Source: Protonemura montana (lineage: Eukaryota > Arthropoda > Insecta > Plecoptera > Nemouridae). Taken from it: a stretch of 64,000 nt of DNA. This document shows, piece by piece, positions 21,933 through 64,000 of this stretch. The position numbers and the translations under genes were made by a program. Under the pieces are notes generated by a model that searched no databases, was not told where the DNA came from, and saw only the letters and a list, made by a program, of their open reading frames with translations. Positions within the stretch are counted from its first letter, which is position 1. Each line of letters starts with the position of its first letter. The stretch spans positions 17,009,208-17,073,207 of the forward strand of contig OX387609.1 in NCBI GenBank assembly GCA_947568835.1, in the 5' to 3' direction.

Positions 21933-22949
21933 CCTGCCCCATGTCCTGCCCTATGTCCTGCCCCATGTCCTGCCCCATTTTCTGCTCCATGTCCCGCCCC
22001 ATGTCCTGCCCCATGTCCCATGTCATGCCCCATGTCCTGCCCCATGTCCTGCCCCATGTCCTGTCCCATGTCCTGCTCCATGTCCTGCCCCATGTCCTGC
22101 CCCATGTCCTGCCCCATGTCCTGCCCCATGTCCTGCCCCATGTCCCATGTCCTGCCCCATGTCCTGCCCCATGTCCTGCCCCATGTCCTGCCCTATGTCC
22201 TGTCCCATGTCCTGCCCCATGTCCTGCCCCATGTCCTGCCCTATGTCCTGCCCCATGTCCTGCCCCATGTCCTGCCCCATGTCTTGCCCCATGTCCCATG
22301 TCCTGCCCCATGTCCTGCCCCATGTCCTGCCCCATGTCCTGCTCCATGTCCTGCCCCATGTCCTGCCCCATGTCCTGCCCTATGTCCTGCCCCATGTCCT
22401 GCCCCATGTCCTGCCCCATGTCCTGCCCTATGTCCTGCCCCATGTCCTGCCCCATGTCCTGCCCTATGTCCTGTCCCATGTCCTGTCCCATGTCATGTCC
22501 CATGTCCTGTCCCATGTCCTGCCTCATGTCCTGCCCCATGTCCTGCCCCATAGCCTGGCCTATGTCCTGCCCCATGTCCTGTCCTATGTCCTGCCCCATG
22601 TCCTGCCCCATGTCCTGCCCCATGTCCTGCCCCATGTCCTGCCCCATGTCCTGTCCCATGTCATGTCCCATGTCCTGCTCCATGTCCTGCCCCATGTCCT
22701 GCCCCATGTCCTGCCCTATGTCCTGCCCCATGTCCTGCCCCATGTCCTGCCACATGTCCTGCCCCATGTCCTGCCCTATGTCCTGCCCCATGTCCTGCCC
22801 CATGTCCCATGTCCTGCCCCATGTCCTGCCCCTTGTCCTGTCCCATTTCCTGCCCCATGTCCTGCCCCATGTCCTGCCCCATGTCCTGCCCCATGTCCTG
22901 CCCTATGTCCTGCCCCATGTCTTGCCCCATGTCCCATGTCCTGCCCCAT

Positions 22950-24185
22950 GTCCTGCCCCATGTCCTGCCCCATGTCCTGCCCTATGTCCTGTCCCATGTC
23001 CTGTCCCATGTCATGTCCCATGTCCTGCTCCATGTCCTGCCCCATGTCCTGCCCCATGTCCTGCCCTATGTCCTGCCCCATGTCCTGCCCCATGTCCTGC
23101 CCCATGTCCTGCTCCATGACCTGCCCCATGTCCCATGTCCTGCCCCATGTCCTGCCCCATGTCCTGCCCCAAGTCCTGCCTCATGTCCTGCCCCATGTCC
23201 TGCCCCATGTCCTGCCCCATGTCCTGCCCCATGTCCTGCCCTATGTCCTGCCCCATGTCCTGCCCCATGTCCTGCCCTATGTCCTGTCCCATGTCCTGTC
23301 CCATGTCCTGCCCCATGTCCTGCCCCATGTCCTTCCCTATGTTCTGTCCCATGTCCTGCCCCATGTCCTGCCCCATGTCCTGCTCCATGTCCTCCCCCTG
23401 TCCTGCCTCATGTCCCATGTCCTGCCCCGTGTCCTGCCCAATGTCCTGCCCCATGTCCTGCCCTATAACCTGTCCCATGTCCTGCCCCATGTCCTGCCCC
23501 ATGTCCTGCCCCATGTCCTGCCCCATGTCTTTCCCCATGTCCCATGTCCTGCCCCATGTCCTGCCCCATGTCCTGCCCCATGTCATGCCCTATGTCCTGT
23601 CCCATGTCCTGCCTCATGTCCTGCCCCATGTCCTGTCCCATGTCCTGCCTCATGTCCTACCCCATGTCCTGCCCTATGTCCTGCCCCATGTCCTGCCCCA
23701 TGTCCTGCCCCATGTCCTGCCCCATGTCCTGCCCCATGTCCTGTCCCATGTCATGTCCCATGTCCTGCTCCATGTCCTGCCCCATGTCCTGCCCCATGTC
23801 CTGCCCTATGTCCTGCCCCATGTCCTGCCCCTTGTCCTGCCCCATGTCCTGCCCCATGTCCTGCCCTATGTCCTGCCCCATGTCCTGCCCCATGTCCCAT
23901 GTCCTGCCCCATGTCCTGCCCCTTGTCCTGTCCCATTTCCTGCCCCATGTCCTGCCCCATGTCCTGCCCCATGTCCTGCCCCTTGTCCTGCCCCATGTGC
24001 TGCCCCATGTCTTGCCCCTCGTCCCATGTCCTGCCCCATATCCTGCCCCATGTCCTGCCCCATGTCCTTCCCTATGTCCTGTCCTATGTCCTGCCCCATG
24101 TCCTGCCCCATGTCCTGCTCCATGTCCTCCCCCTGTCCTGCCCCATGTCCCATGTCCTGCTCCATGTCCTGCCCTATGTCCTGCC
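22950..24185. repeat. Array block duplicated at about 25045-26280 (offset 2095 bp)
   Basis: Rare variant units occur in the same order and at the same spacing in both blocks, for example CTTGCCCCTCGTCCC at 24011 and 26106, CCCTATGTTCTG at 23336 and 25431, and CCCTATAACCTG at 23461 and 25556. The blocks diverge on the right where 24185 onward has CACTTCCTG units. Confidence 0.8.
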
Positions 24186-27100
24186 CCACTTCCTGCCCCA
24201 CTTCCTGCCCCATGTCCTGCCTCACTTCCTGCCCCATGTCCTGCCTCACTTCCTGCTCCATGTCCTGCCCCATGTCCTGCCCCATGTCCTGCCCTATGTC
24301 CTGCCCCATGTCCTGCCCCATGTCCTGCCCCATGTCCTGCCCTATGTCCTGCCCCATGTCCTGCCCCATGTCCTGCCCTATGTCCTGTCCCATGTCCTGT
24401 CCCATGTCATGTCCCATGTCCTGCTCCATGTCCTGCCCCATGTCCTGCCCCATGTCCTGCCCTATGTCCTGCCCCATGTCCTGCCCCATGTCCTGCCCCA
24501 TGTCCTGCTCCATGACCTGCCCCATGTCCCATGTCCTGCCCCATGTCCTGCCCCATGTCCTGCCCCAAGTCCTGCCTCATGTCCTGCCCCATGTCCTGCC
24601 CCATGTCCTGCCCCATGTCCTGCCCCATGTCCTGCCCTATGTCCTGCCCCATGTCCTGCCCCATGTCCTGCCCTATGTCCTGTCCCATGTCCTGTCCCAT
24701 GTCCTGCCCCATGTCCTGCCCCATGTCCTTCCCTATGTCCTGTCCCATGTCCTGCCCCATGTCCTGCCCCATGTCCTGCTCCATGTCCTCCCCCTGTCCT
24801 GCCTCATGTCCCATGTCCTGCCCCGTGTCCTGCCCAATGTCCTGCCCCATGTCCTGCCCTATGTCCTGCCCCATGTCCTGCCCCATGTCCTGCCCCATGT
24901 CCTGCTCCATGACCTGCCCCATGTCCCATGTCCTGCCCCATGTCCTGCCCCATGTCCTGCCCCATGTCCTGCCCCATGTCTTTCCCCATGTCCCATGTCC
25001 TGCCCCATGTCCTGCCCCATGTCCTGCCCCATGTCCTGCCCCATGTCCTGCCCCATGTCCTGCCCCATGTCCTGCCCTATGTCCTGTCCCATGTCCTGTC
25101 CCATGTCATGTCCCATGTCCTGCTCCATGTCCTGCCCCATGTCCTGCCCCATGTCCTGCCCTATGTCCTGCCCCATGTCCTGCCCCATGTCCTGCCCCAT
25201 GTCCTGCTCCATGACCTGCCCCATGTCCCATGTCCTGCCCCATGTCCTGCCCCATGTCCTGCCCCAAGTCCTGCCTCATGTCCTGCCCCATGTCCTGCCC
25301 CATGTCCTGCCCCATGTCCTGCCCCATGTCCTGCCCTATGTCCTGCCCCATGTCCTGCCCCATGTCCTGCCCTATGTCCTGTCCCATGTCCTGTCCCATG
25401 TCCTGCCCCATGTCCTGCCCCATGTCCTTCCCTATGTTCTGTCCCATGTCCTGCCCCATGTCCTGCCCCATGTCCTGCTCCATGTCCTCCCCCTGTCCTG
25501 CCTCATGTCCCATGTCCTGCCCCGTGTCCTGCCCAATGTCCTGCCCCATGTCCTGCCCTATAACCTGTCCCATGTCCTGCCCCATGTCCTGCCCCATGTC
25601 CTGCCCCATGTCCTGCCCCATGTCTTTCCCCATGTCCCATGTCCTGCCCCATGTCCTGCCCCATGTCCTGCCCCATGTCATGCCCTATGTCCTGTCCCAT
25701 GTCCTGCCTCATGTCCTGCCCCATGTCCTGTCCCATGTCCTGCCTCATGTCCTACCCCATGTCCTGCCCTATGTCCTGCCCCATGTCCTGCCCCATGTCC
25801 TGCCCCATGTCCTGCCCCATGTCCTGCCCCATGTCCTGTCCCATGTCATGTCCCATGTCCTGCTCCATGTCCTGCCCCATGTCCTGCCCCATGTCCTGCC
25901 CTATGTCCTGCCCCATGTCCTGCCCCTTGTCCTGCCCCATGTCCTGCCCCATGTCCTGCCCTATGTCCTGCCCCATGTCCTGCCCCATGTCCCATGTCCT
26001 GCCCCATGTCCTGCCCCTTGTCCTGTCCCATTTCCTGCCCCATGTCCTGCCCCATGTCCTGCCCCATGTCCTGCCCCTTGTCCTGCCCCATGTGCTGCCC
26101 CATGTCTTGCCCCTCGTCCCATGTCCTGCCCCATATCCTGCCCCATGTCCTGCCCCATGTCCTTCCCTATGTCCTGTCCTATGTCCTGCCCCATGTCCTG
26201 CCCCATGTCCTGCTCCATGTCCTCCCCCTGTCCTGCCCCATGTCCCATGTCCTGCTCCATGTCCTGCCCTATGTCCTGCCCCATGTCCTGCCCCATGTCC
26301 TGCCCCATGTCCTGCCCCATGTCCTGCCCCATGTCCTGCTCCATGTCCTGCCCCATGTCCTGCCCCATGTCCTGCCCTATGTCCTGCCCCATGTCCTGCC
26401 CCATGTCCTGCCCCATGTCCTGCCCTATGTCCTGCCCCATGTCCTGCCCCATGTCCTGCCCTATGTCCTGTCCCATGTCCTGTCCCATGTCATGTCCCAT
26501 GTCCTGCTCCATGTCCTGCCCCATGTCCTGCCCCATGACCTGCCCTATGTCCTGCCCCATGTCCTGCCCCATGTCCTGCCCCATGTCCTGCTCCATGACC
26601 TGCCCCATGTCCCATGTCCTGCCCCATGTCCTGCCCCATGTCCTGCCCCAAGTCCTGCCTCATGTCCTGCCCCATGTCCTGCCCCATGTCCTGCCCCATG
26701 TCCTGCCCCATGTCCTGCCCTATGTCCTGCCCCATGTCCTGCCCCATGTCCTGCCCTATGTCCTGTCCCATGTCCTGTCCCATGTCCTGCCCCATGTCCT
26801 GCCCCATGTCCTTCCCTATGTCCTGTCCCATGTCCTGCCCCATGTCCTGCCCCATGTCCTGCTCCATGTCCTCCCCCTGTCCTGCCTCATGTCCCATGTC
26901 CTGCCCCGTGTCCTGCCCAATGTCCTGCCCCATGTCCTGCCCTATGTCCTGCCCCATGTCCTGCCCCATGTCCTGCCCCATGTCCTGCTCCATGACCTGC
27001 CCCATGTCCCATGTCCTGCCCCATGTCCTGCCCCATGTCCTGCCCCATGTCCTGCCCCATGTCTTTCCCCATGTCCCATGTCCTGCCCCATGTCCTGCCC

Positions 27101-30100
27101 CATGTCCTGCCCCATGTCCTGCCCCATGTCCTGTCCCATGTCCTGCCTCATGTCCTGCCCCATGTCCTGCCCCATAGCCTGGCCTATGTCCTGCCCCATG
27201 TCCTGTCCCATGTCCTGCCCCATGTTTTGCCCCATGTCCTGCCCCATGTCCTGCCCTATGTCCTGTCCCATGTCCTGCCCCATGTCCTGCCCCATGTCCT
27301 GTCCCATGTCCTGCCTCATGTCCTACCCCATGTCCTGCCCTATGTCCTGCCCCATGTCCTGCCCCATGTCCTGCCCCATGTCCTGCCCCATGTCCTGCCC
27401 CATGTCCTGTCCCATGTCATGTCCCATGTCCTGCTCCATGTCCTGCCCCATGTCCTGCCCCATGTCCTGCCCTATGTCCTGCCCCATGTCCTGCCCCATG
27501 TCCTGCCCCATGTCCTGCCCCATGTCCTGCCCTATGTCCTGCCCCATGTCCTGCCCCATGTCCCATGTCCTGCCCCATGTCCTGCCCCTTGTCCTGTCCC
27601 ATTTCCTGCCCCATGTCCTGCCCCATGTCCTGCCCCATGTCCTGCCCCATGTCCTGCCCTATGTCCTGCCCCATGTCTTGCCCCATGTCCCATGTCCTGC
27701 CCCATGTCCTGCCCCATGTCCTGCCCCATGTCCTGCCCTATGTCCTGTCCCATGTCCTGTCCCATGTCATGTCCCATGTCCTGCTCCATGTCCTGCCCCA
27801 TGTCCTGCCCCATGTCCTGCCCTATGTCCTGCCCCATGTCCTGCCCCATGTCCTGCCCCATGTCCTGCTCCATGACCTGCCCCATGTCCCATGTCCTGCC
27901 CCATGTCCTGCCCCATGTCCTGCCCCAAGTCCTGCCTCATGTCCTGCCCCATGTCCTGCCCCATGTCCTGCCCCATGTCCTGCCCCATGTCCTGCCCTAT
28001 GTCCTGCCCCATGTCCTGCCCCATGTCCTGCCCTATGTCCTGTCCCATGTCCTGTCCCATGTCCTGCCCCATGTCCTGCCCCACGTCCTTCCCTATGTCC
28101 TGTCCCATGTCCTGCCCCATGTCCTGCCCCATGTCCTGCTCCATGTCCTCCCCCTGTCCTGCCTCATGTCCCATGTCCTGCCCCGTGTCCTGCCCAATGT
28201 CCTGCCCCATGTCCTGCCCTATAACCTGTCCCATGTCCTGCCCCATGTCCTGCCCCATGTCCTGCCCCATGTCCTGCCCCATGTCTTTCCCCATGTCCCA
28301 TGTCCTGCCCCATGTCCTGCCCCATGTCCTGCCCCATGTCCTGCCCTATGTCCTGCCCCATGTCCTGTCCCATGTCCTGCCCCATGTTTTGCCCCATGTC
28401 CTGCCCCATGTCCTGCCCCATGTCCTGCCCCAAGTCCTGCCTCATGTCCTTCCCTATGTCCTGTCCCATGTCCTGCCCCATGTCCTGCCCCATGTCCTGC
28501 TCCATGTCCTCCCCCTGTCCTGCCTCATGTCCCATGTCCTGCCCCGTGTCCTGCCCAATGTCCTGCCCCATGTCCTGCCCTATGTCCTGCCCCATGTCCT
28601 GCCCCATGTCCTGCCCCATGTCCTGCTCCATGACCTGCCCCATGTCCCATGTCCTGCCCCATGTCCTGCCCCATGTCCTGCCCCATGTCCTGCCCCATGT
28701 CTTTCCCCATGTCCCATGTCCTGCCCCATGTCCTGCCCCATGTCCTGCCCCATGTCCTGCCCCATGTCCTGTCCCATGTCCTGCCTCATGTCCTGCCCCA
28801 TGTCCTGCCCCATAGCCTGGCCTATGTCCTGCCCCATGTCCTGTCCCATGTCCTGCCCCATGTTTTGCCCCATCTCCTGCCCCATGTCCTGCCCTATGTC
28901 CTGTCCCTTGTCCTGCCCCATGTCCTGCCCCATGTCCTGTCCCATGTCCTGCCTCATGTCCTACCCCATGTCCTGCCCTATGTCCTGCCCCATGTCCTGC
29001 CCCATGTCCTGCCCCATGTCCTGCCCCATGTCCTGCCCCATGTCCTGTCCCATGTCATGTCCCATGTCCTGCTCCATGTCCTGCCCCATGTCCTGCCCCA
29101 TGTCCTGCCCTATGTCCTGCCCCATGTCCTGCCCCATGTCCTGCCCCATGTCCTGCCCCATGTCCTGCCCTATGTCCTGCCCCATGTCCTGCCCCATGTC
29201 CCATGTCCTGCCCCATGTCCTGCCCCTTGTCCTGTCCCATTTCCTGCCCCATGTCCTGCCCCATGTCCTGCCCCATGTCCTGCCCCATGTCCTGCCCTAT
29301 GTCCTGCCCCATGTCTTGCCCCATGTCCCATGTCCTGCCCCATGTCCTGCCCCATGTCCTGCCCCATGTCCTGCCCTATGTCCTGTCCCATGTCCTGTCC
29401 CATGTCATGTCCCATGTCCTGCTCCATGTCCTGCCCCATGTCCTGCCCCATGTCCTGCCCTATGTCCTGCCCCATGTCCTGCCCCATGTCCTGCCCCATG
29501 TCCTGCTCCATGACCTTCCCCATGTCCCATGTCCTGCCCCATGTCCTGCCCCATGTCCTGCCCCATGTCCTGCCCCATGTCCTGCCCTATGTCCTGCCCC
29601 ATGTCCTGCCCCATGTCCTGCCCTATGTCCTGTCCCATGTCCTGTCCCATGTCCTGCCCATGTCCTGCCCCATGTCCTTCCCTATGTCCTGTCCCATGTC
29701 CTGCCCCATGTCCTGCCCCATGTCCTGCTCCATGTCCTCCCCCTGTCCTGCCTCATGTCCCATGTCCTGCCCCGTGTCCTGCCCAATGTCCTGCCCCATG
29801 TCCTGCCCTATAACCTGTCCCATGTCCTGCCCCATGTCCTGCCCCATGTCCTGCCCCATGTCCTGCCTCATGTCTTTCCCCATGTCCCATGTCCTGCCCC
29901 ATGTCCTGCCCCATGTCCTGCCCCATGTCCTGCCCTATGTCCTGTCCCATGTCCTGCCTCATGTCCTGCCCCATGTCCTGCCCCATAGCCTGGCCTATGT
30001 CCTGCCCCATGTCCTGTCCCATGTCCTGCCCCATGTTTTGCCCCATGTCCTGCCCCATGTCCTGCCCTATGTCCTGTCCCATGTCCTGCCCCATGTCCTG

Positions 30101-30133
30101 CCCCATGTCCTGTCCCATGTCCTGCCTCATGTC

Positions 30134-31300
30134 CTACCCCATGTCCTGCCCTATGTCCTGCCCCATGTCCTGCCCCATTTCCTGCCCCATGTCCTGCCCC
30201 ATGTCCTGCCCCATGTCCTGTCCCATGTCATGTCCCATGTCCTGCTCCATGTCCTGCCCCATGTCCTGCCCCATGTCCTGCCCTATGTCCTGCCCCATGT
30301 CCTGCCCCATGTCCTGCCCCATGTCCTGCCCCATGTCCTGCCCTATGTCCTGCCCCATGTCCTGCCCCATGTCCCATGTCCTGCCCCATGTCCTGCCCCT
30401 TGTCCTGTCCCATTTCCTGCCCCATGTACTGCCCCATGTCCTGCCCCATGTCCTGCCCCATGTCCTGCCCCATGTCCTGCCCCATGTCTTGCCCCTCGTC
30501 CCATGTCCTGCCCCATATCCTGCCCCATGTCCTGCCCCATGTCCTTCCCTATGTCCTGTCCTATGTCCTGCCCCATGTCCTGCCCCATGTCCTGCTCCAT
30601 GTCCTCCCCCTGTCCTGCCCCATGTCCCATGTCCTGCCCCATGTCCTGCCCCATGTCCCGCCTATGTCCTGCCCTATGTCCTGTCCCATGTCCTGCCCCA
30701 TGTCCTGCCCCATGTCCTGCCCTATGTCCTGCCCCATGTCTTGCCCCATGTCCCATGTCCTGCCCCATGTCCTGCCCCATGTCCTGCCCCATGTCCTGCC
30801 CTATGTCCTGCCCCATGTCCTGCCCCATTTTCTGCTCCATGTTCCACCCCATGTCCTGCCCCATGTCCCATGTCCTGCCCCATGTCCTGCCCCATGTCCT
30901 ACCCCATGTCCTGCCCTATGTCCTGTCTTATGTCCTGCCCCATGTCCTGCCCCATGTCCTGCTCCATGTCCTGCCCCATGTCCTGCTCCATGTCCCATGT
31001 CCTGCCCCATGTCCTGCCCCATGTCCTGTCCCATGTCCTGCCTCATGTCCTGCCCCATGTCCTGCCCCATGTCCTGCCCCATGTCCTGCCCCATGTCCTG
31101 TCCCATGTCCTGCCCCATGTCATGCCCCATGTCCTGCCCCATGTCCTGCCCCATGTCCCATGTCCTGCCCCATGTCCTGCCCTTTGTCCTGTCCCATTTC
31201 CTGCCCCATGTTCTGCCCCATGTCCTGCCCCATGTCCTGCCCCATGTCCTGCCCCATGTTCTGCCCCATGTCCTGCCCTATGTCTTGCCCCATGTCCCAT
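30134..31300. repeat. Array block duplicated at about 33827-34993 (offset 3693 bp)
   Basis: Shared rare units keep a constant offset, for example the short CCCGCCTATGTCC unit near 30658 and 34351, and CCATTTTCTGCTCCATGTTC near 30826 and 34519. A few single-base differences (CTTGCC/TTTGCC) mark divergence since duplication. Confidence 0.75.
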
Positions 31301-34300
31301 GTCCTGCCCCATGTCCTGCCCCATGTCCTGCCCCATGTCCTTCCCTATGTCCTGTCCTATGTCCTGCCCCATGTCCTGCCCCATGTCCTGCTCCATGTCC
31401 TGCCCCATGTCCTGCCCCATGTCCCATGTCCTGCCCCATGTCCTGCCCCATGTCCTGCCCCATGTCCTGCCCTATGTCCTGTCCCATGTCCTGCCCCATG
31501 TCCTGCCCCATGTCCTGCCCTATGTCCTGCCCCATGTCCTGCCCCATGTCCTGCCCCATGTCTTGCCCCATGTCCCATGTCCTGCCCCATGTCCTGCCCC
31601 ATGTCCTGCCCCATGTCCTGCTCCATGTCCTGCCCCATGTCCTGCCCCATGTCCTGCCCTATGTCCTGCCCCATGTCCTGCCCCATGTCCTGCCCCATGT
31701 CCTGCCCTATGTCCTGCCCCATGTCCTGCCCCATGTCCTGCCCTATGTCCTGTCCCATGTCCTGTCCCATGTCATGTCCCATGTCCTGCTCCATGTCCTG
31801 CCCCATGTCCTGCCCCATGTCCTGCCCTATGTCCTGCCCCATGTCCTGCCCCATGTCCTGCCCCATGTCCTGCTCCATGACCTGCCCCATGTCCCATGTC
31901 CTGCCCCATGTCCTGCCCCATGTCCTGCCCCAAGTCCTGCCTCATGTCCTGCCCCATGTCCTGCCCCATGTCCTGCCCCATGTCCTGCCCCATGTCCTGC
32001 CCTATGTCCTGCCCCATGTCCTGCCCCATGTCCTGCCCTATGTCCTGTCCCATGTCCTGTCCCATGTCCTGCCCCATGTCCTGCCCCATGTCCTTCCCTA
32101 TGTCCTGTCCCATGTCCTGCCCCATGTCCTGCCCCATGTCCTGCTCCATGTCCTCCCCCTGTCCTGCCTCATGTCCCATGTCCTGCCCCGTGTCCTGCCC
32201 AATGTCCTGCCCCATGTCCTGCCCTATGTCCTGCCCCATGTCCTGCCCCATGTCCTGCCCCATGTCCTGCTCCATGACCTGCCCCATGTCCCATGTCCTG
32301 CCCCATGTCCTGCCCCATGTCCTGCCCCATGTCCTGCCCCATGTCTTTCCCCATGTCCCATGTCCTGCCCCATGTCCTGCCCCATGTCCTGCCCCATGTC
32401 CTGCCCCATGTCCTGTCCCATGTCCTGCCTCATGTCCTGCCCCATGTCCTGCCCTATAGCCTGGCCTATGTCCTGCCCCATGTCCTGTCCCATGTCCTGC
32501 CCCATGTTTTGCCCCATGTCCTGCCCCATGTCCTGCCCTATGTCCTGTCCCATGTCCTGCCCCATGTCCTGCCCCATGTCCTGTCCCATGTCCTGCCTCA
32601 TGTCCTACCCCATGTCCTGCCCTATGTCCTGCCCCATGTCCTGCCCCATGTCCTGCCCCATGTCCTGCCCCATGTCCTGCCCCATGTCCTGTCCCATGTC
32701 ATGTCCCATGTCCTGCTCCATGTCCTGCCCCATGTCCTGCCCCATGTCCTGCCCTATGTCCTGCCCCATGTCCTGCCCCATGTCCTGCCCCATGTCCCGC
32801 CCCATGTCCTGCCCTATGTCCTGCCCCATGTCCTGCCCCATGTCCCATGTCCTGCCCCATGTCCTGCCCCTTGTCCTGTCCCATTTCCTGCCCCATGTCC
32901 TGCCCCATGTCCTGCCCCATGTCCTGCCCCATGTCCTGCCCTATGTCCTGCCCCATGTCTTGCCCCATGTCCCATGTCCTGCCCCATGTCCTGCCCCATG
33001 TCCTGCCCCATGTCCTGCCCTATGTCCTGTCCCATGTCCTGTCCCATATCATGTCCCATGTCCTGCTCCATGTCCTGCCCCATGTCCTGCCCCATGTCCT
33101 GCCCTATGTCCTGCCCCATGTCCTGCCCCATGTCCTGCCCCATGTCCTGCTCCATGACCTGCCCCATGTCCCATGTCCTGCCCCATGTCCTGCCCCATGT
33201 CCTGCCCCAAGTCCTGCCTCATGTCCTGCCCCATGTCCTGCCCCATGTCCTGCCCCATGTCCTGCCCCATGTCCTGCCCTATGTCCTGCCCCATGTCCTG
33301 CCCCATGTCCTGCCCTATGTCCTGTCCCATGTCCTGTCCCATGTCCTGCCCCATGTCCTGCCCCATGTCCTTCCCTATGTCCTGTCCCATGTCCTGCCCC
33401 ATGTCCTGCCCCATGTCCTGCTCCATGTCCTCCCCCTGTCCTGCCTCATGTCCCATGTCCTGCCCCGTGTCCTGCCCAATGTCCTGCCCCATGTCCTGCC
33501 CTATAACCTGTCCCATGTCCTGCCCCATGTCCTGCCCCATGTCCTGCCCCATGTCCTGCCCCATGTCTTTCCCCATGTCCCATGTCCTGCCCCATGTCCT
33601 GCCCCATGTCCTGCCCCATGTCCTGCCCTATGTCCTGTCCCATGTCCTGCCTCATGTCCTGCCCCATGTCCTGCCCCATAGCCTGGCCTATGTCCTGCCC
33701 CATGTCCTGTCCCATGTCCTGCCCCATGTTTTGCCCCATGTCCTGCCCCATGTCCTGCCCTATGTCCTGTCCCATGTCCTGCCCCATGTCCTGCCCCATG
33801 TCCTGTCCCATGTCCTGCCTCATGTCCTACCCCATGTCCTGCCCTATGTCCTGCCCCATGTCCTGCCCCATGTCCTGCCCCATGTCCTGCCCCATGTCCT
33901 GCCCCATGTCCTGTCCCATGTCATGTCCCATGTCCTGCTCCATGTCCTGCCCCATGTCCTGCCCCATGTCCTGCCCTATGTCCTGCCCCATGTCCTGCCC
34001 CATGTCCTGCCCCATGTCCTGCCCCATGTCCTGCCCTATGTCCTGCCCCATGTCCTGCCCCATGTCCCATGTCCTGCCCCATGTCCTGCCCCTTGTCCTG
34101 TCCCATTTCCTGCCCCATGTCCTGCCCCATGTCCTGCCCCATGTCCTGCCCCATGTCCTGCCCCATGTCCTGCCCCATGTCTTGCCCCTCGTCCCATGTC
34201 CTGCCCCATATCCTGCCCCATGTCCTGCCCCATGTCCTTCCCTATGTCCTGTCCTATGTCCTGCCCCATGTCCTGCCCCATGTCCTGCTCCATGTCCTCC

Positions 34301-51290: not shown

Positions 51291-54200
51291 GTCCCATGTC
51301 CTGCCCCATGTCCTGCCCCATGTCCTGCCCCATGTCCTGCCCTATGTCCTGTCCCATGTCCTGCCCCATGTCCTGCCCCATGTCCTGCCCCATGTCCTGC
51401 CCCATGTCTTTCCCCATGTCCCATGTCCTGCCTCATGTCCTGCCCCATGTCCTGCCCCATAGCCTGGCCAATGTCCTGCCCCATGTCCTGTCCCATGTCC
51501 TGCCCCATGTTTTGCCCCATGTCCTGCCCCATGTCCTGCCCTATGTCCTGTCCCATGTCCTGCCCCATGTCCTGCCCCATGTCCTGTCCCATGTCCTGCC
51601 TCATGTCCTACCCTATGTCCTGCCCCATTTCCTGCCCCATGTCCTGCCCCATGTCCTGCCCCATGTCCTGCCCCATGTCCTGCCCCATGTCCTGCCCCAT
51701 GTCTTGCCCCATGTCCCATGTCCTGCCCCATGTCCTGCCCCATGTCCTACCCCATGTCCTGCCCTATGTCCTGTCTTATGTCCTGCCCCATGTCCTGCCC
51801 CATGTCCTGCTCCATGTCCTGCCCCATGTCCTGCTCCATGTCCCATGTCCTGCCCCATGTCCTGCCCCATGTCCTGTCCCATGTCCTGCCTCATGTCCTG
51901 CCCCATGTCCTGCCCCATGTCCTGCCCCATGTCCTGCCCCATGTCCTGTCCCATGTCCTGCCCCATGTCATGCCCCATGTCCTGCCCCATGTCCTGCCCC
52001 ATATCCCATGTCCTGCCCCATGTCCTGCCCTATGTCCTGCCCCATGTCCTGCCCCATTTTCTGCTCCATGTCCCGCCCCATGTCCTGCCCCATGTCCCAT
52101 GTCATGCCCCATGTCCTGCCCCATGTCCTGCCCCATGTCCTGTCCCATGTCCTGCTCCATGTCCTGCCCCATGTCCTGCCCCATGTCCTGCCCCATGTCC
52201 TGCCCCATGTCCTGCCCCATGTCCTGCCCTATGTCCTGCCCCATGTCCTGCCCCATGTCCTGCCCCATGTCCTGCCCTATGTCCTGCCCCATGTCCTGCC
52301 CCATGTCCTGCCCCATGTCCTGTCCCATGTCATGTCCCATGTCCTGCTCCATGTCCTGCCCCATGTCCTGCCCCATGTCCTGCCCTATGTCCTGCCCCAT
52401 GTCTTGCCCCATGTCCTGCCCCATGTCCTGCCCCATGTCCTGCCCCATGTCCTGCCCCATGTCCTGCCCCATGTCCCATGTCCTGCCCCATGTCCTGCCC
52501 CTTGTCATGTCCCATTTCCTGCCCCATGTCCTACCCCATGTCTTTCCCATGTCCTGCCCCATGTCCTGCCCCATGTCCTGCCTCATGTCCTGCCCCATGT
52601 CTTGCCCCATGTCCCATGTCCTGCCCCATGTCCTGCCCCATGTCCTGCCCCATGTCCTGCCCTATGTCCTGTCTTATGTCCTTCCCCATGTAATGCCCCA
52701 TGTCCTGCTCCATGTCCTCCCCCTGTCCTGCCCTATGTCTTATGTCCTGCCCCATGTCCTGCCTCATGTCCTGCCCCATGTCCTGCCCTAAGTCCTGTCC
52801 CATGTCCTGCCCCATTTCCTGCCCCATGTCCTGCTCCATGTCCTGCCCCATGTCCTGCCCCATGTCCCGCTCCATGTCCTCCCCCTGTCCTGCCTCATGT
52901 CCCATGTCCTGCCCCATGTCCTGCCCCATGTCCTGCCCCATGTCCTGCCCCATGTCCTGTCCCATGTCCTGCCCCATGTTTTGCCCCATGTCCTGTCCAA
53001 TGTCCTGCCTTATGTCCTGCCCCATGTCCTGCCCCATGTCCTGCCCCATGTCCTGCCCCATGTCCTGCCCTATGTCCTGCCCCATGTCCTGCCCCATGTC
53101 CTGCCCTATGTCCTGTCCCAAGTCCTGTCCCATGTCCTGCCCCATGTCCTGCCCCATGTCCTTCCCTATGTCCTGTCCCATGTCCTGCCCCATGTCCTGC
53201 CCCATGTCCTGCTCCATGTCCTGTCCCATGTCCTGCCCCATGTCCTGCCCCATGTCCTGCCCCATGTCCTGCCCTATGTCCTGTCCCATGTCCTGCCCCA
53301 TGTCCTGCCCCATGTCCTGCCCCATGTCCTGCCCCATGTCTTTCCCCATGTCCCATGTCCTGCCTCATGTCCTGCCCCATGTCCTGCCCCATAGCCTGGC
53401 CAATGTCCTGCCCCATGTCCTGTCCCATGTCCTGCCCCATGTTTTGCCCCATGTCCTGCCCCATGTCCTGCCCTATGTCCTGTCCCATGTCCTGCCCCAT
53501 GTCCTGCCCCATGTCCTGTCCCATGTCCTGCCTCATGTCCTGCCCCATGTCCTGCCCCATGTCCTGTCCCATGTCCTGCCCAATGTCCTGCCCCATGTCC
53601 TGCTCCATGTCCTGCCCCATGTCCTGCCCCATGTCCTGCCCTATGTCCTGCCCCATGTCCTGCCCCATGTCCTGCCCCATGTCCTGCCCTATGTCCTGCC
53701 CCATGTCCTGCCCCATGTCCTGCCCCATGTCCTGTCCCATTTCATGTCCCATGTCCTGCTCCATGTCCTGCCCCATGTCCTGCCCCATGTCCTGCCCTAT
53801 GTCCTGCCCCATGTCTTGCCCCATGTCCTGCCCCATGTCCTGCCCCATGTCCTGCCCCATGTCCTGCCCCATGTCCTGCCCCATGTCCCATGTCCTGCCC
53901 CATGTCCTGCCCCTTGTCCTGTCCCATTTCCTGCCCCATGTCCTACCCCATGTCCTGCCCCATGTCCTGCCCCATGTCCTGCCCCATGTCCTGCCTCATG
54001 TCCTGCCCCATGTCTTGCCCCATGTTCCATGTCCTGCCCCATGTCCTGCCCCATGTCCTGCCCCATGTCCTGCCTCATGTCCTGCCCCATGTCTTGCCCC
54101 ATGTTCCATGTCCTGCCCCATGTCCTGCCCCATGTCCTGCCCCATGTCCTGCCCTATGTCCTGTCTTATGTCCTGCCCCATGTAATGCCCCATGTCCTGC

Positions 54201-56619
54201 TCCATGTCCTCCCCCTGTCCTGCCCTATGTCTTATGTCCTGCCCCATGTCCTGCCTCATGTCCTGCACCATGTCCTGCCCTATGTCCTGTCCCATGTCCT
54301 GCCCCATTTCCTGCCCCATGTCCTGCTCCATGTCCTGCCCCATGTCCTGCCCCATGTCCCGCTCCATGTCCTCCCCCTGTCCTGCCTCATGTCCCATGTC
54401 CTGCCCCATGTCCTGCCCCATGTCCTGCCCCATGTCCTGCCCCATGTCCTGTCCCATGTCCTGCCCCATGTTTTGCCCCATGTCCTGTCCAATGTCCTGC
54501 CTTATGTCCTGCCCCATGTCCTGCCCCATGTCCTGCCCCATGTCCTGCCCCATGTCCTGCCCTATGTCCTGCCCCATGTCCTGCCCCATGTCCTGCCCTA
54601 TGTCCTGTCCCAAGTCCTGTCCCATGTCCTGCCCCATGTCCTGCCCCATGTCCTTCCCTATGTCCTGTCCCATGTCCTGCCCCATGTCCTGCCCCATGTC
54701 CTGCTCCATGTCCTGTCCCATGTCCTGCCCCATGTCCTGCCCCATGTCCTGCCCCATGTCCTGCCCTATGTCCTGTCCCATGTCCTGCCCCATGTCCTGC
54801 CCCATGTCCTGCCCCATGTCCTGCCCCATGTCTTTCCCCATGTCCCATGTCCTGCCTCATGTCCTGCCCCATGTCCTGCCCCATAGCCTGGCCAATGTCC
54901 TGCCCCATGTCCTGTCCCATGTCCTGCCCCATGTTTTGCCCCATGTCCTGCCCCATGTCCTGCCCTATGTCCTGTCCCATGTCCTGCCCCATGTCCTGCC
55001 CCATGTCCTGTCCCATGTCCTGCCTCATGTCCTACCCTATGTCCTGCCCCATTTCCTGCCCCATGTCCTGCCCCATGTCCTGCCCCATGTCCTGCCCCAT
55101 GTCCTGCCCCATGTCCTGTCCCATGTCCTGCCCAATGTCCTGCCCCATGTCCTGCTCCATGTCCTGCCCCATGTCCTGCCCCATGTCCTGCCCTATGTCC
55201 TGCCCCATGTCCTGCCCCATGTCCTGCCCCATGTCCTGCCCTATGTCCTGCCCCATGTCCTGCCCCATGTCCTGCCCCATGTCCTGTCCCATTTCATGTC
55301 CCATGTCCTGCTCCATGTCCTGCCCCATGTCCTGCCCCATGTCCTGCCCTATGTCCTGCCCCATGTCTTGCCCCATGTCCTGCCCCATGTCCTGCCCCAT
55401 GTCCTGCCCCATGTCCTGCCCCATGTCCTGCCCCATGTCCCATGTCCTGCCCCATGTCCTGCCCCTTGTCCTGTCCCATTTCCTGCCCCATGTCCTACCC
55501 CATGTCCTGCCCCATGTCCTGCCCCATGTCCTGCCCCATGTCCTGCCTCATGTCCTGCCCCATGTCTTGCCCCATGTTCCATGTCCTGCCCCATGTCCTG
55601 CCCCATGTCCTGCCCCATGTCCTGCCTCATGTCCTGCCCCATGTCTTGCCCCATGTTCCATGTCCTGCCCCATGTCCTGCCCCATGTCCTGCCCCATGTC
55701 CTGCCCTATGTCCTGTCTTATGTCCTGCCCCATGTAATGCCCCATGTCCTGCTCCATGTCCTCCCCCTGTCCTGCCCTATGTCTTATGTCCTGCCCCATG
55801 TCCTGCCTCATGTCCTGCCCCATGTCCTGCCCTATGTCCTGTCCCATGTCCTGCCCCATTTCCTGCCCCATGTCCTGCTCCATGTCCTGCCCCATGTCCT
55901 GCCCCATGTCCCGCTCCATGTCCTCCCCCTGTCCTGCCTCATGTCCCATGTCCTGCCCCATGTCCTGCCCCATGTCCTGCCCCATGTCCTGCCCCATGTC
56001 CTGTCCCATGTCCTGCCCCATGTTTTGCCCCATGTCCTGTCCAATGTCCTGCCTTATGTCCTGCCCCATGTCCTGCCCCATGTCCTGCCCCATGTCCTGC
56101 CCCATGTCCTGCCCTATGTCCTGCCCCATGTCCCGCTCCATGTCCTCCCCCTGTCCTGCCTCATGTCCCATGTCCTGCCCCATGTCCTGCCCCATGTCCT
56201 GCCCCATGTCCTGCCCCATGTCCTGTCCCATGTCCTGCCCCATGTTTTGCCCCATGTCCTGTCCAATGTCCTGCCTTATGTCCTGCCCCATGTCCTGCCC
56301 CATGTCCTGCCCCATGTCCTGCCCCATGTCCTGCCCTATGTCCTGCCCCATGTCCTGCCCCATGTCCTGCCCTATGTCCTGTCTCATGTCCTGTCCCATG
56401 TCCTGCCCCATGTCCTGCCCCATGTCCTTCCCTATGTCCTGTCCCATGTCCTGCCCCATGTCCTGCCCCATGTCCTGCTCCATGTCCTGTCCCATGTCCT
56501 GCCCCATGTCCTGTCCCATGTCCTGCCCCATGTCCTGCCCCATGTCCTGCCCCATGTCCTACCCCATGTCCTGCCCTATGTCCTGTCTTATGTCCTGCCC
56601 CATGTCCTGCCCCATGTCC

Positions 56620-59600
56620 TGCTCCATGTCCTGCCCCATGTCCTGCTCCATGTCCCATGTCCTGCCCCATGTCCTGCCCCATGTCCTGTCCCATGTCCTG
56701 CCCCATGTCATGCCCCATGTCCTGCCCCATGTCCTGCCCCATATCCCATGTCCTGCCCCATGTCCTGCCCTATGTCCTGCCCCATGTCCTGCCCCATTTT
56801 CTGCTCCATGTCCCGCCCCATGTCCTGCCCCATGTCCCATGTCATGCCCCATGTCCTGCCCCATGTCCTGCCCCATGTCCTGTCCCATGTCCTGCTCCAT
56901 GTCCTGCCCCATGTCCTGCCCCATGTCCTGCCCCATGTCCTGCCCCATGTCCTGCCCCATGTCCTGCCCTATGTCCTGCCCCATGTCCTGCCCCATGTCC
57001 TGCCCCATGTCCTGCCCTATGTCCTGCCCCATGTCCTGCCCCATGTCCTGCCCCATGTCCTGTCCCATGTCATGTCCCATGTCCTGCTCCATGTCCTGCC
57101 CCATGTCCTGCCCCATGTCCTGCCCTATGTCCTGCCCCATGTCTTGCCCCATGTCCTGCCCCATGTCCTGCCCCATGTCCTGCCCCATGTCCTGCCCCAT
57201 GTCCTGCCCCATGTCCCATGTCCTGCCCCATGTCCTGCCCCTTGTCCTGTCCCATTTCCTGCCCCATGTCCTACCCCATGTCTTTCCCATGTCCTGCCCC
57301 ATGTCCTGCCCCATGTCCTGCCTCATGTCCTGCCCCATGTCTTGCCCCATGTCCCATGTCCTGCCCCATGTCCTGCCCCATGTCCTGCCCCATGTCCTGC
57401 CCTATGTCCTGTCTTATGTCCTTCCCCATGTAATGCCCCATGTCCTGCTCCATGTCCTCCCCCTGTCCTGCCCTATGTCTTATGTCCTGCCCCATGTCCT
57501 GCCTCATGTCCTGCCCCATGTCCTGCCCTAAGTCCTGTCCCATGTCCTGCCCCATTTCCTGCCCCATGTCCTGCTCCATGTCCTGCCCCATGTCCTGCCC
57601 CATGTCCCGCTCCATGTCCTCCCCCTGTCCTGCCTCATGTCCCATGTCCTGCCCCATGTCCTGCCCCATGTCCTGCCCCATGTCCTGCCCCATGTCCTGT
57701 CCCATGTCCTGCCCCATGTTTTGCCCCATGTCCTGTCCAATGTCCTGCCTTATGTCCTGCCCCATGTCCTGCCCCATGTCCTGCCCCATGTCCTGCCCCA
57801 TGTCCTGCCCTATGTCCTGCCCCATGTCCTGCCCCATGTCCTGCCCTATGTCCTGTCCCAAGTCCTGTCCCATGTCCTGCCCCATGTCCTGCCCCATGTC
57901 CTTCCCTATGTCCTGTCCCATGTCCTGCCCCATGTCCTGCCCCATGTCCTGCTCCATGTCCTGTCCCATGTCCTGCCCCATGTCCTGCCCCATGTCCTGC
58001 CCCATGTCCTGCCCTATGTCCTGTCCCATGTCCTGCCCCATGTCCTGCCCCATGTCCTGCCCCATGTCCTGCCCCATGTCTTTCCCCATGTCCCATGTCC
58101 TGCCTCATGTCCTGCCCCATGTCCTGCCCCATAGCCTGGCCAATGTCCTGCCCCATGTCCTGTCCCATGTCCTGCCCCATGTTTTGCCCCATGTCCTGCC
58201 CCATGTCCTGCCCTATGTCCTGTCCCATGTCCTGCCCCATGTCCTGCCCCATGTCCTGTCCCATGTCCTGCCTCATGTCCTACCCTATGTCCTGCCCCAT
58301 TTCCTGCCCCATGTCCTGCCCCATGTCCTGCCCCATGTCCTGCCCCATGTCCTGCCCCATGTCCTGTCCCATGTCCTGCCCAATGTCCTGCCCCATGTCC
58401 TGCTCCATGTCCTGCCCCATGTCCTGCCCCATGTCCTGCCCTATGTCCTGCCCCATGTCCTGCCCCATGTCCTGCCCCATGTCCTGCCCTATGTCCTGCC
58501 CCATGTCCTGCCCCATGTCCTGCCCCATGTCCTGTCCCATTTCATGTCCCATGTCCTGCTCCATGTCCTGCCCCATGTCCTGCCCCATGTCCTGCCCTAT
58601 GTCCTGCCCCATGTCTTGCCCCATGTCCTGCCCCATGTCCTGCCCCATGTCCTGCCCCATGTCCTGCCCCATGTCCTGCCCCATGTCCCATGTCCTGCCC
58701 CATGTCCTGCCCCTTGTCCTGTCCCATTTCCTGCCCCATGTCCTACCCCATGTCCTGCCCCATGTCCTGCCCCATGTCCTGCCCCATGTCCTGCCTCATG
58801 TCCTGCCCCATGTCTTGCCCCATGTTCCATGTCCTGCCCCATGTCCTGCCCCATGTCCTGCCCCATGTCCTGCCTCATGTCCTGCCCCATGTCTTGCCCC
58901 ATGTTCCATGTCCTGCCCCATGTCCTGCCCCATGTCCTGCCCCATGTCCTGCCCTATGTCCTGTCTTATGTCCTGCCCCATGTAATGCCCCATGTCCTGC
59001 TCCATGTCCTCCCCCTGTCCTGCCCTATGTCTTATGTCCTGCCCCATGTCCTGCCTCATGTCCTGCCCCATGTCCTGCCCTATGTCCTGTCCCATGTCCT
59101 GCCCCATTTCCTGCCCCATGTCCTGCTCCATGTCCTGCCCCATGTCCTGCCCCATGTCCCGCTCCATGTCCTCCCCCTGTCCTGCCTCATGTCCCATGTC
59201 CTGCCCCATGTCCTGCCCCATGTCCTGCCCCATGTCCTGCCCCATGTCCTGTCCCATGTCCTGCCCCATGTTTTGCCCCATGTCCTGTCCAATGTCCTGC
59301 CTTATGTCCTGCCCCATGTCCTGCCCCATGTCCTGTCCCATGTCCTGCCTCATGTCCTGCCCCATGTCCTGCCCCATGTCCTGCCCCATGTCCTGCCCCA
59401 TGTCCTGTCCCATGTCCTGCCCCATGTCATGCCCCATGTCCTGCCCCATGTCCTGCCCCATATCCCATGTCCTGCCCCATGTCCTGCCCTATGTCCTGCC
59501 ACATGTCCTGCCCCATTTTCTGCTCCATGTCCCGCCCCATGTCCTGCCCCATGTCCCATGTCATGCCCCATGTCCTGCCCCATGTCCTGCCCCATGTCCT

Positions 59601-62010
59601 GTCCCATGTCCTGCTCCATGTCCTGCCCCATGTCCTGCCCCATGTCCTGCCCCATGTCCTGCCCCATGTCCTGCCCCATGTCCTGCCCTATGTCCTGCCC
59701 CATGTCCTGCCCCATGTCCTGCCCCATGTCCTGCCCTATGTCCTGCCCCATGTCCTGCCCCATGTCCTGCCCCATGACCTGTCCCATGTCATGTCCCATG
59801 TCCTGCTCCATGTCCTGCCCCATGTCCTGCCCCATGTCCTGCCCTATGTCCTGCCCCATGTCTTGCCCCATGTCCTGCCCCATGTCCTGCCCCATGTCCT
59901 GCCCCATGTCCTGCCCCATGTCCTGCCCCATGTCCCATGTCCTGCCCCATGTCCTGCCCCTTGTCCTGTCCCATTTCCTGCCCCATGTCCTACCCCATGT
60001 CTTTCCCATGTCCTGCCCCATGTCCTGCCCCATGTCCTGCCTCATGTCCTGCCCCATGTCTTGCCCCATGTCCCATGTCCTGCCCCATGTCCTGCCCCAT
60101 GTCCTGCCCCATGTCCTGCCCTATGTCCTGTCTTATGTCCTGCCCCATGTAATGCCCCATGTCCTGCTCCATGTCCTCCCCCTGTCCTGCCCTATGTCTT
60201 ATGTCCTGCCCCATGTCCTGCCTCATGTCCTGCCCCATGTCCTGCCCTAAGTCCTGTCCCATGTCCTGCCCCATTTCCTGCCCCATGTCCTGCTCCATGT
60301 CCTGCCCCATGTCCTGCCCCATGTCCCGCTCCATGTCCTCCCCCTGTCCTGCCTCATGTCCCATGTCCTGCCCCATGTCCTGCCCCATGTCCTGCCCCAT
60401 GTCCTGCCCCATGTCCTGTCCCATGTCCTGCCCCATGTTTTGCCCCATGTCCTGTCCAATGTCCTGCCTTATGTCCTGCCCCATGTCCTGCCCCATGTCC
60501 TGCCCCATGTCCTGCCCCATGTCCTGCCCTATGTCCTGCCCCATGTCCTGCCCCATGTCCTGCCCTATGTCCTGTCCCAAGTCCTGTCCCATGTCCTGCC
60601 CCATGTCCTGCCCCATGTCCTTCCCTATGTCCTGTCCCATGTCCTGCCCCATGTCCTGCCCCATGTCCTGCTCCATGTCCTGTCCCATGTCCTGCCCCAT
60701 GTCCTGCCCCATGTCCTGCCCCATGTCCTGCCCTATGTCCTGTCCCATGTCCTGCCCCATGTCCTGCCCCATGTCCTGCCCCATGTCTTGCCCCATGTCT
60801 TTCCCCATGTCCCATGTCCTGCCTCATGTCCTGCCCCATGTCCTGCCCCATAGCCTGGCCAATGTCCTGCCCCATGTCCTGTCCCATGTCCTGCCCCATG
60901 TTTTGCCCCATGTCCTGCCCCATGTCCTGCCCTATGTCCTGTCCCATGTCCTGCCCCATGTCCTGCCCCATGTCCTGTCCCATGTCCTGCCTCATGTCCT
61001 ACCCTATGTCCTGCCCCATTTCCTGCCCCATGTCCTGCCCCATGTCCTGCCCCATGTCCTGCCCCATGTCCTGCCCCATGTCCTGTCCCATGTCCTGCCC
61101 AATGTCCTGCCCCATGTCCTGCTCCATGTCCTGCCCCATGTCCTGCCCCATGTCCTGCCCTATGTCCTGCCCCATGTCCTGCCCCATGTCCTGCCCCATG
61201 TCCTGCCCTATGTCCTGCCCCATGTCCTGCCCCATGTCCTGCCCCATGTCCTGTCCCATTTCATGTCCCATGTCCTGCTCCATGTCCTGCCCCATGTCCT
61301 GCCCCATGTCCTGCCCTATGTCCTGCCCCATGTCTTGCCCCATGTCCTGCCCCATGTCCTGCCCCATGTCCTGCCCCATGTCCTGCCCCATGTCCTGCCC
61401 CATGTCCCATGTCCTGCCCCATGTCCTGCCCCTTGTCCTGTCCCATTTCCTTCCCCATGTCCTACCCCATGTCCTGCCCCATGTCCTGCCCCATGTCCTG
61501 CCCCATGTCCTGCCTCATGTCCTGCCCCATGTCTTGCCCCATGTTCCATGTCCTGCCCCATGTCCTGCCCCATGTCCTGCCCCATGTCCTGCCTCATGTC
61601 CTGCCCCATGTCTTGCCCCATGTTCCATGTCCTGCCCCATGTCCTGCCCCATGTCCTGCCCCATGTCCTGCCCTATGTCCTGTCTTATGTCCTGCCCCAT
61701 GTAATGCCCCATGTCCTGCTCCATGTCCTCCCCCTGTCCTGCCCTATGTCTTATGTCCTGCCCCATGTCCTGCCTCATGTCCTGCCCCATGTCCTGCCCT
61801 ATGTCCTGTCCCATGTCCTGCCCCATTTCCTGCCCCATGTCCTGCTCCATGTCCTGCCCCATGTCCTGCCCCATGTCCCGCTCCATGTCCTCCCCCTGTC
61901 CTGCCTCATGTCCCATGTCCTGCCCCATGTCCTGCCCCATGTCCTGCCCCATGTCCTGCCCCATGTCCTGTCCCATGTCCTGCCCCATGTTTTGCCCCAT
62001 GTCCTGTCCA
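56620..62010. repeat. Near-tandem duplication of a 2719-bp higher-order unit in the array
   Basis: From about 56620-59290 the variant pattern repeats at 59340-62010 with an offset of 2719 bp. CATGTCTTTCCCATGTCC (57280, 59999) and CATAGCCTGGCCAATG (58132, 60850) are example markers. The few differences are single-base. Confidence 0.75.
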
Positions 62011-64000
62011 ATGTCCTGCCTTATGTCCTGCCCCATGTCCTGCCCCATGTCCTGCCCCATGTCCTGCCCCATGTCCTGCCCTATGTCCTGCCCCATGTCC
62101 TGCCCCATGTCCTGCCCTATGTCCTGTCTCATGTCCTGTCCCATGTCCTGCCCCATGTCCTGCCCCATGTCCTTCCCTATGTCCTGTCCCATGTCCTGCC
62201 CCATGTCCTGCCCCATGTCCTGCTCCATGTCCTGTCCCATGTCCTGCCCCATGTCCTGCCCCATGTCCTGCCCCATGTCCTGCCCTATGTCCTGTCCCAT
62301 GTCCTGCCCCATGTCCTGCCCCATGTCCTGCCCCATGTCCTGCCCCATGTCTTTCCCCATGTCCCATGTCCTGCCTCATGTCCTGCCCCATGTCCTGCCC
62401 CATAGCCTGGCCAATGTCCTGCCCCATGTCCTGTCCCATGTCCTGCCCCATGTTTTGCCCCATGTCCTGCCCCATGTCCTGCCCTATGTCCTGTCCCATG
62501 TCCTGCCCCATGTCCTGCCCCATGTCCTGTCCCATGTCCTGCCTCATGTCCTACCCTATGTCCTGCCCCATTTCCTGCCCCATGTCCTGCCCCATGTCCT
62601 GCCCCATGTCCTGCCCCATGTCCTGCCCCATGTCCTGCCCCATGTCTTGCCCCATGTCCCATGTCCTGCCCCATGTCCTGCCCCATGTCCTACCCCATGT
62701 CCTGCCCTATGTCCTGTCTTATGTCCTGCCCCATGTCCTGCCCCATGTCCTGCTCCATGTCCTGCCCCATGTCCTGCTCCATGTCCCATGTCCTGCCCCA
62801 TGTCCTGCCCCATGTCCTGTCCCATGTCCTGCCTCATGTCCTGCCCCATGTCCTGCTCCATGTCCTGCCCCATGTCCTGCCCCATGTCCTGTCCCATGTC
62901 CTGCCCCATGTCATGCCCCATGTCCTGCCCCATGTCCTGCCCCATATCCCATGTCCTGCCCCATGTCCTGCCCTATGTCCTGCCCCATGTCCTGCCCCAT
63001 TTTCTGCTCCATGTCCCGCCCCATGTCCTGCCCCATGTCCCATGTCATGCCCCATGTCCTGCCCCATGTCCTGCCCCATGTCCTGTCCCATGTCCTGCTC
63101 CATGTCCTGCCCCATGTCCTGCCCCATGTCCTGCCCCATGTCCTGCCCCATGTCCTGCCCCATGTCCCATGTCCTGCCCCATGTCCTGCCCCATGTCCTG
63201 CCCCATGTCCTGCCCTATGTCCTGTCCCATGTCCTGCCCCATGTCCTGCCCCATGTCCTGCCCTATGTCCTGCCCCATGTCCTGCCCCATGTCCTGCCCC
63301 ATGTCTTGCCCCATGTCCCATGTCCTGCCCCATGTCCTGCCCCATGTCCTGCCCCATGTCCTGCCCCATGTCCTGCCCCATGTCCTGCCCCATGTCCTGC
63401 CCTATGTCCTGCCCCATGTCCTGCCCCATGTCCTGCCCTATGTCCTGTCCCATGTCCTGTCCCATGTCATGTCCCATGTCCTGCTCCATGTCCTGCCCCA
63501 TGTCCTGCCCCATGTCCTGCCCTATGTCCTGCCCCATGTCCTGCCCCATGTCCTGCCCCATGTCCTGCTCCATGACCTGCCCCATGTCCCATGTCCTGCC
63601 CCATGTCCTGCCCCATGTCCTGCCCCAAGTCCTGCCTCATGTCCTGCCCCATGTCCTGCCCCATGTCCTGCCCCATGTCCTGCCCCATGTCCTGCCCTAT
63701 GTCCTGCCCCATGTCCTGCCCCATGTCCTGCCCTATGTCCTGTCCCATGTCCTGTCCCATGTCCTGCCCCATGTCCTGCCCCATGTCCTTCCCTATGTCC
63801 TGTCCCATGTCCTGCCCCATGTCCTGCCCCATGTCCTGCTCCATGTCCTCCCCCTGTCCTGCCTCATGTCCCATGTCCTGCCCCGTGTCCTGCCCAATGT
63901 CCTGCCCCATGTCCTGCCCTATGTCCTGCCCCATGTCCTGCCCCATGTCCTGCCCCATGTCCTGCTCCATGACCTGCCCCATGTCCCATGTCTTGCCCCA

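What the first reader, a model, noticed from the sequence alone, without database searches (positions are those of the whole stretch)
21933..64000. At least 42 kb of a 12-bp minisatellite open in all six frames
The array is a nearly unbroken field of ATGTCCTGCCCC variants. Because the unit is four codons long and lacks stops in all frames, automated gene callers will predict giant 'MSCP', 'HVLP' or 'MGQD' proteins. An array of this size with such a short unit is unusual, and its function (structural heterochromatin, subtelomere or none) is unknown. The sequence shows the array; its chromosomal role is inference.
Basis: partly seen in the sequence, partly recalled or inferred. Interest (0 to 1): 0.7.

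Follow-up and report, generated by a model that had tools for sequence, protein, structure and literature searches.

The report
Megabase 12-bp satellite at chromosome end
This is the start of a roughly 1.2-million-base block of non-coding 12-letter DNA repeats that caps one end of an animal chromosome up to the telomere, a large but recognisable kind of terminal satellite block whose giant 'proteins' are almost certainly not real.

Summary
The array is real and far larger than the window shows. Tandem Repeats Finder gives 3,594 copies from 21,932 to 63,986. The window is C12:17,009,208-17,073,207 of a 258.5 Mb genome. Between 17.073 and 18.225 Mb, 22 of 22 sampled points carry the 12-mer on the same strand, and the contig ends in TTAGG telomere repeats: a terminal block of about 1.2 Mb.

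"Open in all six frames" holds only for the perfect unit. The real array has 20-28 stops per forward frame and 209-230 per reverse frame, and 7-bp units break phase.

Beyond the finding: 99-100% identical spacers punctuate the proximal part, sequence sharing along C12 falls with distance, and the telomere-side part is degenerate. The proximal edge carries a diverged relative of a subtelomeric element whose canonical form was found at one end of 9 of 11 large contigs, including C12's other end.

Best reading: a terminal, probably heterochromatic satellite, grown by local unequal exchange, with no coding role and organised like ape subterminal caps. Whether this is C12's centromeric end stays open. 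New member of a known kind.

The parts
21932..64000 (+). 12-bp satellite array, unit ATGTCCTGCCCC, with interspersed 7- and 11-bp units; continues beyond the window to about C12:18.228 Mb, next to the telomere
21470..21931 (+). Spacer element at the proximal edge of the array; 15 places at 99-100% including this one (C12 x4, C17 x10, C25 x1), plus one 72% match on C5
15431..21469 (+). Degenerate 12-mers mixed with longer repeats (353- and 467-bp periods); a piece of it (20530-20685) recurs on C12, C17 and C25
15221..15421 (+). Diverged (88-90%) relative of a subtelomeric element whose canonical form lies within 128 kb of one end of nine large contigs
14801..15098 (+). 41-bp repeat, 7.3 copies, also present in the canonical subtelomeric cassette (L035) and at C11:2.27 Mb (L122)

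Best explanation
The array is a non-coding terminal satellite block at the right end of contig C12 (taken to be a chromosome). Shown by sampling: it starts beside a subtelomere-related cassette, carries the 12-mer in one orientation at every C12 point sampled, and ends at the TTAGG telomere. It has three layers: a proximal zone with near-identical spacers, a homogeneous core, and a degenerate zone next to the telomere. Inferred: it grew and is kept homogeneous by local unequal crossing-over or gene conversion, which also copied the spacers. Inferred and untested: it is constitutive heterochromatin, a structural or passenger cap on the pole of C12 opposite the canonical subtelomere. The long ORFs follow from a four-codon stop-free unit and are not genes.
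For: 22 of 22 C12 samples forward; array-to-telomere passage read in L118 and L119; spacer copies followed by array in the four whose downstream side was read; consensus score .81-.91 in 10 samples at or below 17.75 Mb and .63-.77 in 11 from 17.80 Mb on (L011 not scored); 150-mers shared with the window array fall from .67 at 17.073 Mb to .53.14.09 and 0 at 17.10, 17.20, 17.30 and 17.50 Mb; only 72 kinds of unit; frame breaks and stops; subtelomeric element at the proximal edge.
Against: No chromatin, methylation, RNA or cytogenetic data. Sharing with the window is .07 again at 17.75 Mb, and in the 23 array samples of C18 it ranges from 0 to .67, so similarity does not follow place on C12 alone; C18's chromosome is unknown, so 'specific to C12' is not proved. 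In L126 the degenerate block passes into the array without a match to the 462-bp element. Short arrays of the unit lie on C2, C3, C4 and C11 too.
Confidence: 0.7

Rival explanations
1. The homogeneous 12-mer core is the centromere, or the immediate pericentromere, of a telocentric or acrocentric C12. Chromosomes here would be polar: canonical subtelomere at one end, satellite-rich centromeric end at the other.
For: Canonical element at one end only of 9 large contigs in 40 of 82 candidates scored, and a marker 12-mer at the same nine ends in 100 of 119 places listed. Opposite ends often carry satellites: 30-bp at C2R, C13R and C15L, 12-bp at C12R, others at C1L, C14L and C16R. Homogeneous core beside degenerate zones. 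A 12-bp satellite (dodeca) lies at the fly chromosome 3 centromere (PMC4542561).
Against: No CENP-A or Hi-C evidence; the CENP-C search did not complete. Nine marked ends on nine different contigs has probability 0.057 by random placement, or 0.026 under another null: weak. A canonical end also has tandem repeats at 150 kb (C13L), and C4L and C11L looked unremarkable at 150 kb. C12's interior was hardly sampled.
Confidence: 0.3
2. Assembly artefact: the length or end position of the array on C12 is wrong, for instance through false joins or an unresolved second haplotype.
For: C18 changes strand several times among its samples; C17's length is a round 1,170,000; C17's telomere side is nearly the same as C12's, so part of the total may be a second haplotype.
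Against: C12 and C17 both show array, then degenerate zone, then telomere; spacers mark the proximal part; similarity falls with distance along C12. 161,685 exact dimers exist wherever they are placed.
Confidence: 0.08
3. A repetitive protein gene, of the MSCP, HVLP, PAPC or MGQD kind.
For: Forward open stretches up to 1640 aa.
Against: 265 frame-shifting units, stops in every frame, 209-230 stops per reverse frame; same composition in each frame; no credible domain.
Confidence: 0.02

Closest known systems
Subterminal heterochromatic caps of African great apes (32-bp pCht/StSat satellite with segmental-duplication spacers)
   Same: Long arrays of a short unit reaching the chromosome end, interrupted by high-identity spacers (PMC12758386, abstract and start of introduction; PMC12926204, passages).
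   Different: Unit 12 bp and GC-rich, not 32 bp and AT-rich; spacers seen here are a few kb and at 3.7-99 kb intervals, in the proximal zone, against about 32 kb every 287-389 kb in apes. Known on one placed chromosome end here. No common origin claimed; methylation not testable.
Dodeca satellite of Drosophila (11/12-bp unit)
   Same: 12-bp unit with one C-rich and one G-rich strand, long blocks, largely tied to one chromosome in D. melanogaster (PMC4542561).
   Different: Sequence unrelated: 6 of 12 positions at best, reached by 4731 of 5000 shuffles. Centromere-associated there; terminal and of unknown centromere status here.
Satellites of telocentric mouse chromosomes
   Same: Satellite block at or near one chromosome end (PMC8122249, passages).
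   Different: Much longer units and sharing between chromosomes in mouse (recalled, from no call); centromere function unknown here.

Membership tests
Satellite DNA (long tandem array of a short unit) | Head-to-tail copies of one unit over a long stretch | tested here: met
   3594 copies in the window; 22 of 22 C12 samples
Satellite DNA (long tandem array of a short unit) | Heterochromatic packaging | not testable with these tools
   No chromatin data
Terminal (subtelomeric) satellite | Adjoins the telomere | tested here: met
   L118: degenerate 12-mer runs into TTAGG; contig end is TTAGG
Terminal (subtelomeric) satellite | Shares sequence with other chromosome ends | tested here: inconclusive
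   The bordering 200-bp element does, at 88-90%; the 12-mer unit resembles the subtelomeric 12-mer at 9 of 12, reached by 306 of 20000 shuffles, in another arrangement
Ape-type subterminal cap | Array punctuated by high-identity spacers | tested here: met
   15 places at 99-100%; downstream array read in 4 of 15
Ape-type subterminal cap | Homologous 32-bp pCht sequence | tested here: not met
   Period is 12, not 32; so it is not a member, only organised alike
Dodeca satellite | Unit sequence CCCGTACTCGGT or close variant | tested here: not met
   6 of 12, chance level
Centromeric satellite | CENP-A occupancy | not testable with these tools
   No ChIP data; the CENP-C gene search did not complete
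Repetitive protein gene | One frame preserved through the array | tested here: not met
   265 frame-shifting units; stops in every frame

The most novel reading that the evidence does not exclude
This genome has polar, telocentric chromosomes: one pole carries a shared subtelomeric cassette with a small 12-mer repeat, the other a megabase centromeric satellite. On C12 the centromeric satellite is a young 12-bp repeat seeded from such a cassette, so a subtelomeric minisatellite has become, or displaced, a centromere.
Probability: 0.2. Interest if true: 0.65.

Novelty: new member of a known kind. Interest (0 to 1): 0.42.

Why it matters
It offers a layered chromosome-end satellite with a very short unit, with its proximal spacers, its telomere junction and a probable second haplotype, so that satellite growth, local homogenisation and spacer copying can be measured. 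If the satellite pole is the centromeric one, it would tie subtelomeric cassettes to centromere turnover. It also warns annotators against calling giant MSCP, HVLP or MGQD proteins.

Tried and rejected
Coding array: rejected. Relation to dodeca satellite: chance level. Canonical G-quadruplex motif (G3+, loops 1-7) on the G-rich strand: none found; with loops up to 12 the motif covers 62% against 17% in 20 mononucleotide shuffles, and two-tetrad motifs 77% against 39%, a product of the unit and no proof of structure. Watson-Crick folding of four units is no better than shuffles (179 and 126 of 200 shuffles fold at least as well). Regular higher-order repeat: unit-level autocorrelation peaks at .37 against .30 expected, so block copying looks irregular. 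Unit sequence in print: 8 papers hold one of six rotations, none on satellites by title (listing). A mayfly satellite search listed 6 papers, none specific by title. 5S-like repeat in the subtelomere: no Rfam match.

Limits: one search lists only the first 100 places, up to early in the C12 array, so later contigs are not mapped by dimers. score 40 of 131, 82, 82 and 200 candidates; one search lists 100 of 1962 places; one search lists 100 of 119 in contig order, up to C16:40,407. A neighbouring piece of the cassette (L035:5000-5700) also matches at many interior places, so the cassette holds a dispersed element; only the 196-bp element and its 12-mer were used as end markers.

Full report
Observation. 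Tandem Repeats Finder reports one array of period 12 from 21,932 to 63,986 with 3,594 copies. A 24-base dimer with up to two mismatches occurs 2,758 times in the window against a mean of 0.01 in 100 dinucleotide-preserving shuffles. Cut into units, the 42 kb give 3,595 units of only 72 kinds: 3,330 of 12 bp (95.1% identical to ATGTCCTGCCCC), 204 of 7 bp and 61 of 11 bp. GC is 62% with steady GC and AT skew and almost no CpG (observed/expected 0.015).

Frames. The actual array has 25, 28 and 20 stops in the + frames and 209, 230 and 221 in the - frames, with longest open stretches of 1,640 and 461 aa. A C-to-T change at position 12 makes TAG on the reverse strand (299 cases of ACATAGGGC), and the 265 units of 7 or 11 bp change the frame about every 160 bases. 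No preserved protein is there.

Place in the genome. The window is C12:17,009,208-17,073,207 of a genome of 258,480,905 bases in 34 contigs; C12 has 18,231,111 bases. I sampled C12 at 22 points from 17.073 to 18.225 Mb; all 22 carry the 12-mer on the + strand, and one (L011) passes into the spacer module. The contig ends in TTAGG repeats, and L118 shows the passage from degenerate 12-mer to telomere. The block is therefore about 1.2 Mb and terminal; between samples it was not read.

Other contigs. C17 (1.17 Mb) has the same layout and nearly the same telomere junction: 3,202 bp at 99.8%, mostly telomere repeats, with 571 bp of pre-telomere array at 98.8%, and another 301 bp at 99.7%; the two placements differ by about 0.3 kb, so there is a length difference. 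It is most simply the other haplotype of the C12 end, but another chromosome end is not excluded. C18 (5.5 Mb) is array at 23 of 24 point samples, 16 forward and 7 reverse; it begins with a 35-bp satellite that meets the 12-mer at about 10.4 kb. The small contigs C21, C24 and C25 begin with the array.

Internal organisation. Proximal layer: a 462-bp element beside the array (window 21,470-21,931) is found at 15 places at 99-100% identity, this one included: four on C12 (17.031, 17.130, 17.154 and 17.169 Mb), ten on C17 (58-292 kb) and one on C25, with one 72% match on C5. In the four copies whose downstream side I could read (window, L125, L127, L128) the array follows; in L126 the degenerate block passes into the array without this element. 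Core layer: consensus scores .81-.91 in 10 samples. Distal layer.63-.77 in 11 samples from 17.80 Mb on, with longer repeats of its own, since samples up to about 200 kb apart on C12 match over 150-400 bp at 85% or more, 85% being the floor of that search.

Homogenisation. Within the window array 82% of positions have a 150-mer that recurs and 23% a 1,000-mer that recurs. The share of 150-mers of other C12 samples found in the window array is .67 at 17.073 Mb.53 at 17.10.14 at 17.20.09 at 17.30, 0 at 17.50.07 at 17.75 and 0 at 18.00 (L011, mixed.12). It is .31-.51 for the 8-kb starts of C17, C21, C24 and C25, and 0 to .67 in the 23 short array samples of C18. Along C12 this fits local unequal exchange (inference); the scattered C18 values show that blocks are also shared beyond this place.

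The proximal edge. Window 14,801-15,425 holds a 41-bp repeat and a 200-bp element. In one search (40 of 82 candidates scored) a query from this edge gives nine places at 98-100% on C12 and C17, itself included, two diverged relatives on C16 and C11, and 29 shorter matches at 88-90%. Searching with the C28 copy gives again 40 scored of 82: two on C28 and 38 on nine large contigs, all within 128 kb of one end, none at both ends; C12's right end carries only the diverged form. Orientation relative to the end is constant in these 38. Beside the element the canonical cassette (L035) has a short 12-bp repeat, TTGTCCTGCACT; 119 exact dimers exist and the 100 listed lie at the same nine ends. It matches the satellite unit at 9 of 12 positions (306 of 20,000 shuffled 12-mers do as well) but lies on the other side of the element and in the other orientation, so common origin is plausible, not shown. 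C12's canonical end is the left one.

Other chromosome ends. A 30-bp satellite was seen on C2 from 29.157 to 29.224 Mb (first 100 of 1,962 exact places) and at 29.70 Mb, and by eye at C13R and C15L; other short-period repeats at C1L, C3L, C5L, C14L and C16R. Against a clean polarity: C13L, a canonical end, has tandem repeats at 150 kb, and C4L and C11L were unremarkable there. Nine marked ends on nine of 11 contigs has probability 0.057 by random placement, or 0.026 under another null. A telocentric, polar karyotype is worth testing, no more.

Dispersed copies. Before C12, exact dimers lie at six places on C2, C3, C4 and C11. At C4:1.47 Mb the array stands near a stretch that I read by eye as a serine-protease exon. 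At C11:2.27 Mb degenerate 12-mers stand with the element and 41-bp repeat, and at C4:25.26 Mb a 41-bp-type repeat lies on the same 3-kb stretch by eye. The unit thus also exists as short arrays, partly with the cassette.

How it works. The best reading is a non-coding terminal satellite cap, enlarged and homogenised by unequal exchange that also copied spacers, and probably heterochromatic. Its organisation resembles ape subterminal caps, where a 32-bp satellite is punctuated by segmental-duplication spacers and whose function is stated to be unknown (PMC12758386, abstract and start of introduction; PMC12926204, passages). It is no member of that family by sequence. The dodeca satellite of flies (PMC4542561, abstract and part 1 of Results) shows that a 12-bp satellite can lie at a centromere; the sequences are unrelated. 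The centromere rival stays open at about 0.3.

Novelty. Terminal satellites with spacers are known. I found no description of this sequence in my searches (read as listings of an open-licence library). New member of a known kind.

Noticed in passing
window 13100-13700 and C12:16941647-16942247: Reverse transcriptase / RNase H stretch of an LTR retrotransposon (Pfam RVT_1, RT_RNaseH_2) has a 100% identical inverted copy about 80 kb away and 96% copies on C1, C5 and C11.
   Followed up: partly
window 1562-2980 and 6546-9540: An 83-bp x 17.1 and a 189-bp x 15.8 tandem array lie among retrotransposon pieces.
   Followed up: no
C18 (5,535,519 bases), L025 and L124: A contig that is 12-mer array at 23 of 24 point samples with several strand changes, starting in a 35-bp satellite; chromosome unknown, no spacer copy found on it.
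   Followed up: partly
L035:1600-2820 (C28): Roughly 90-bp tandem repeat in the canonical subtelomere resembles part of 5S rRNA by eye, but Rfam gave no match.
   Followed up: partly
L123 (C3:250000-253000): Tandem repeat resembling a tRNA-derived element by eye, next to a short 12-bp array; no Rfam match.
   Followed up: partly
C2:29156928 to at least 29223859, also C13R and C15L: A 30-bp satellite (CTCCAGACACTCTGCCTCGCTAGCCAGACG) with 1962 exact unit matches, near chromosome ends opposite the canonical subtelomere.
   Followed up: partly
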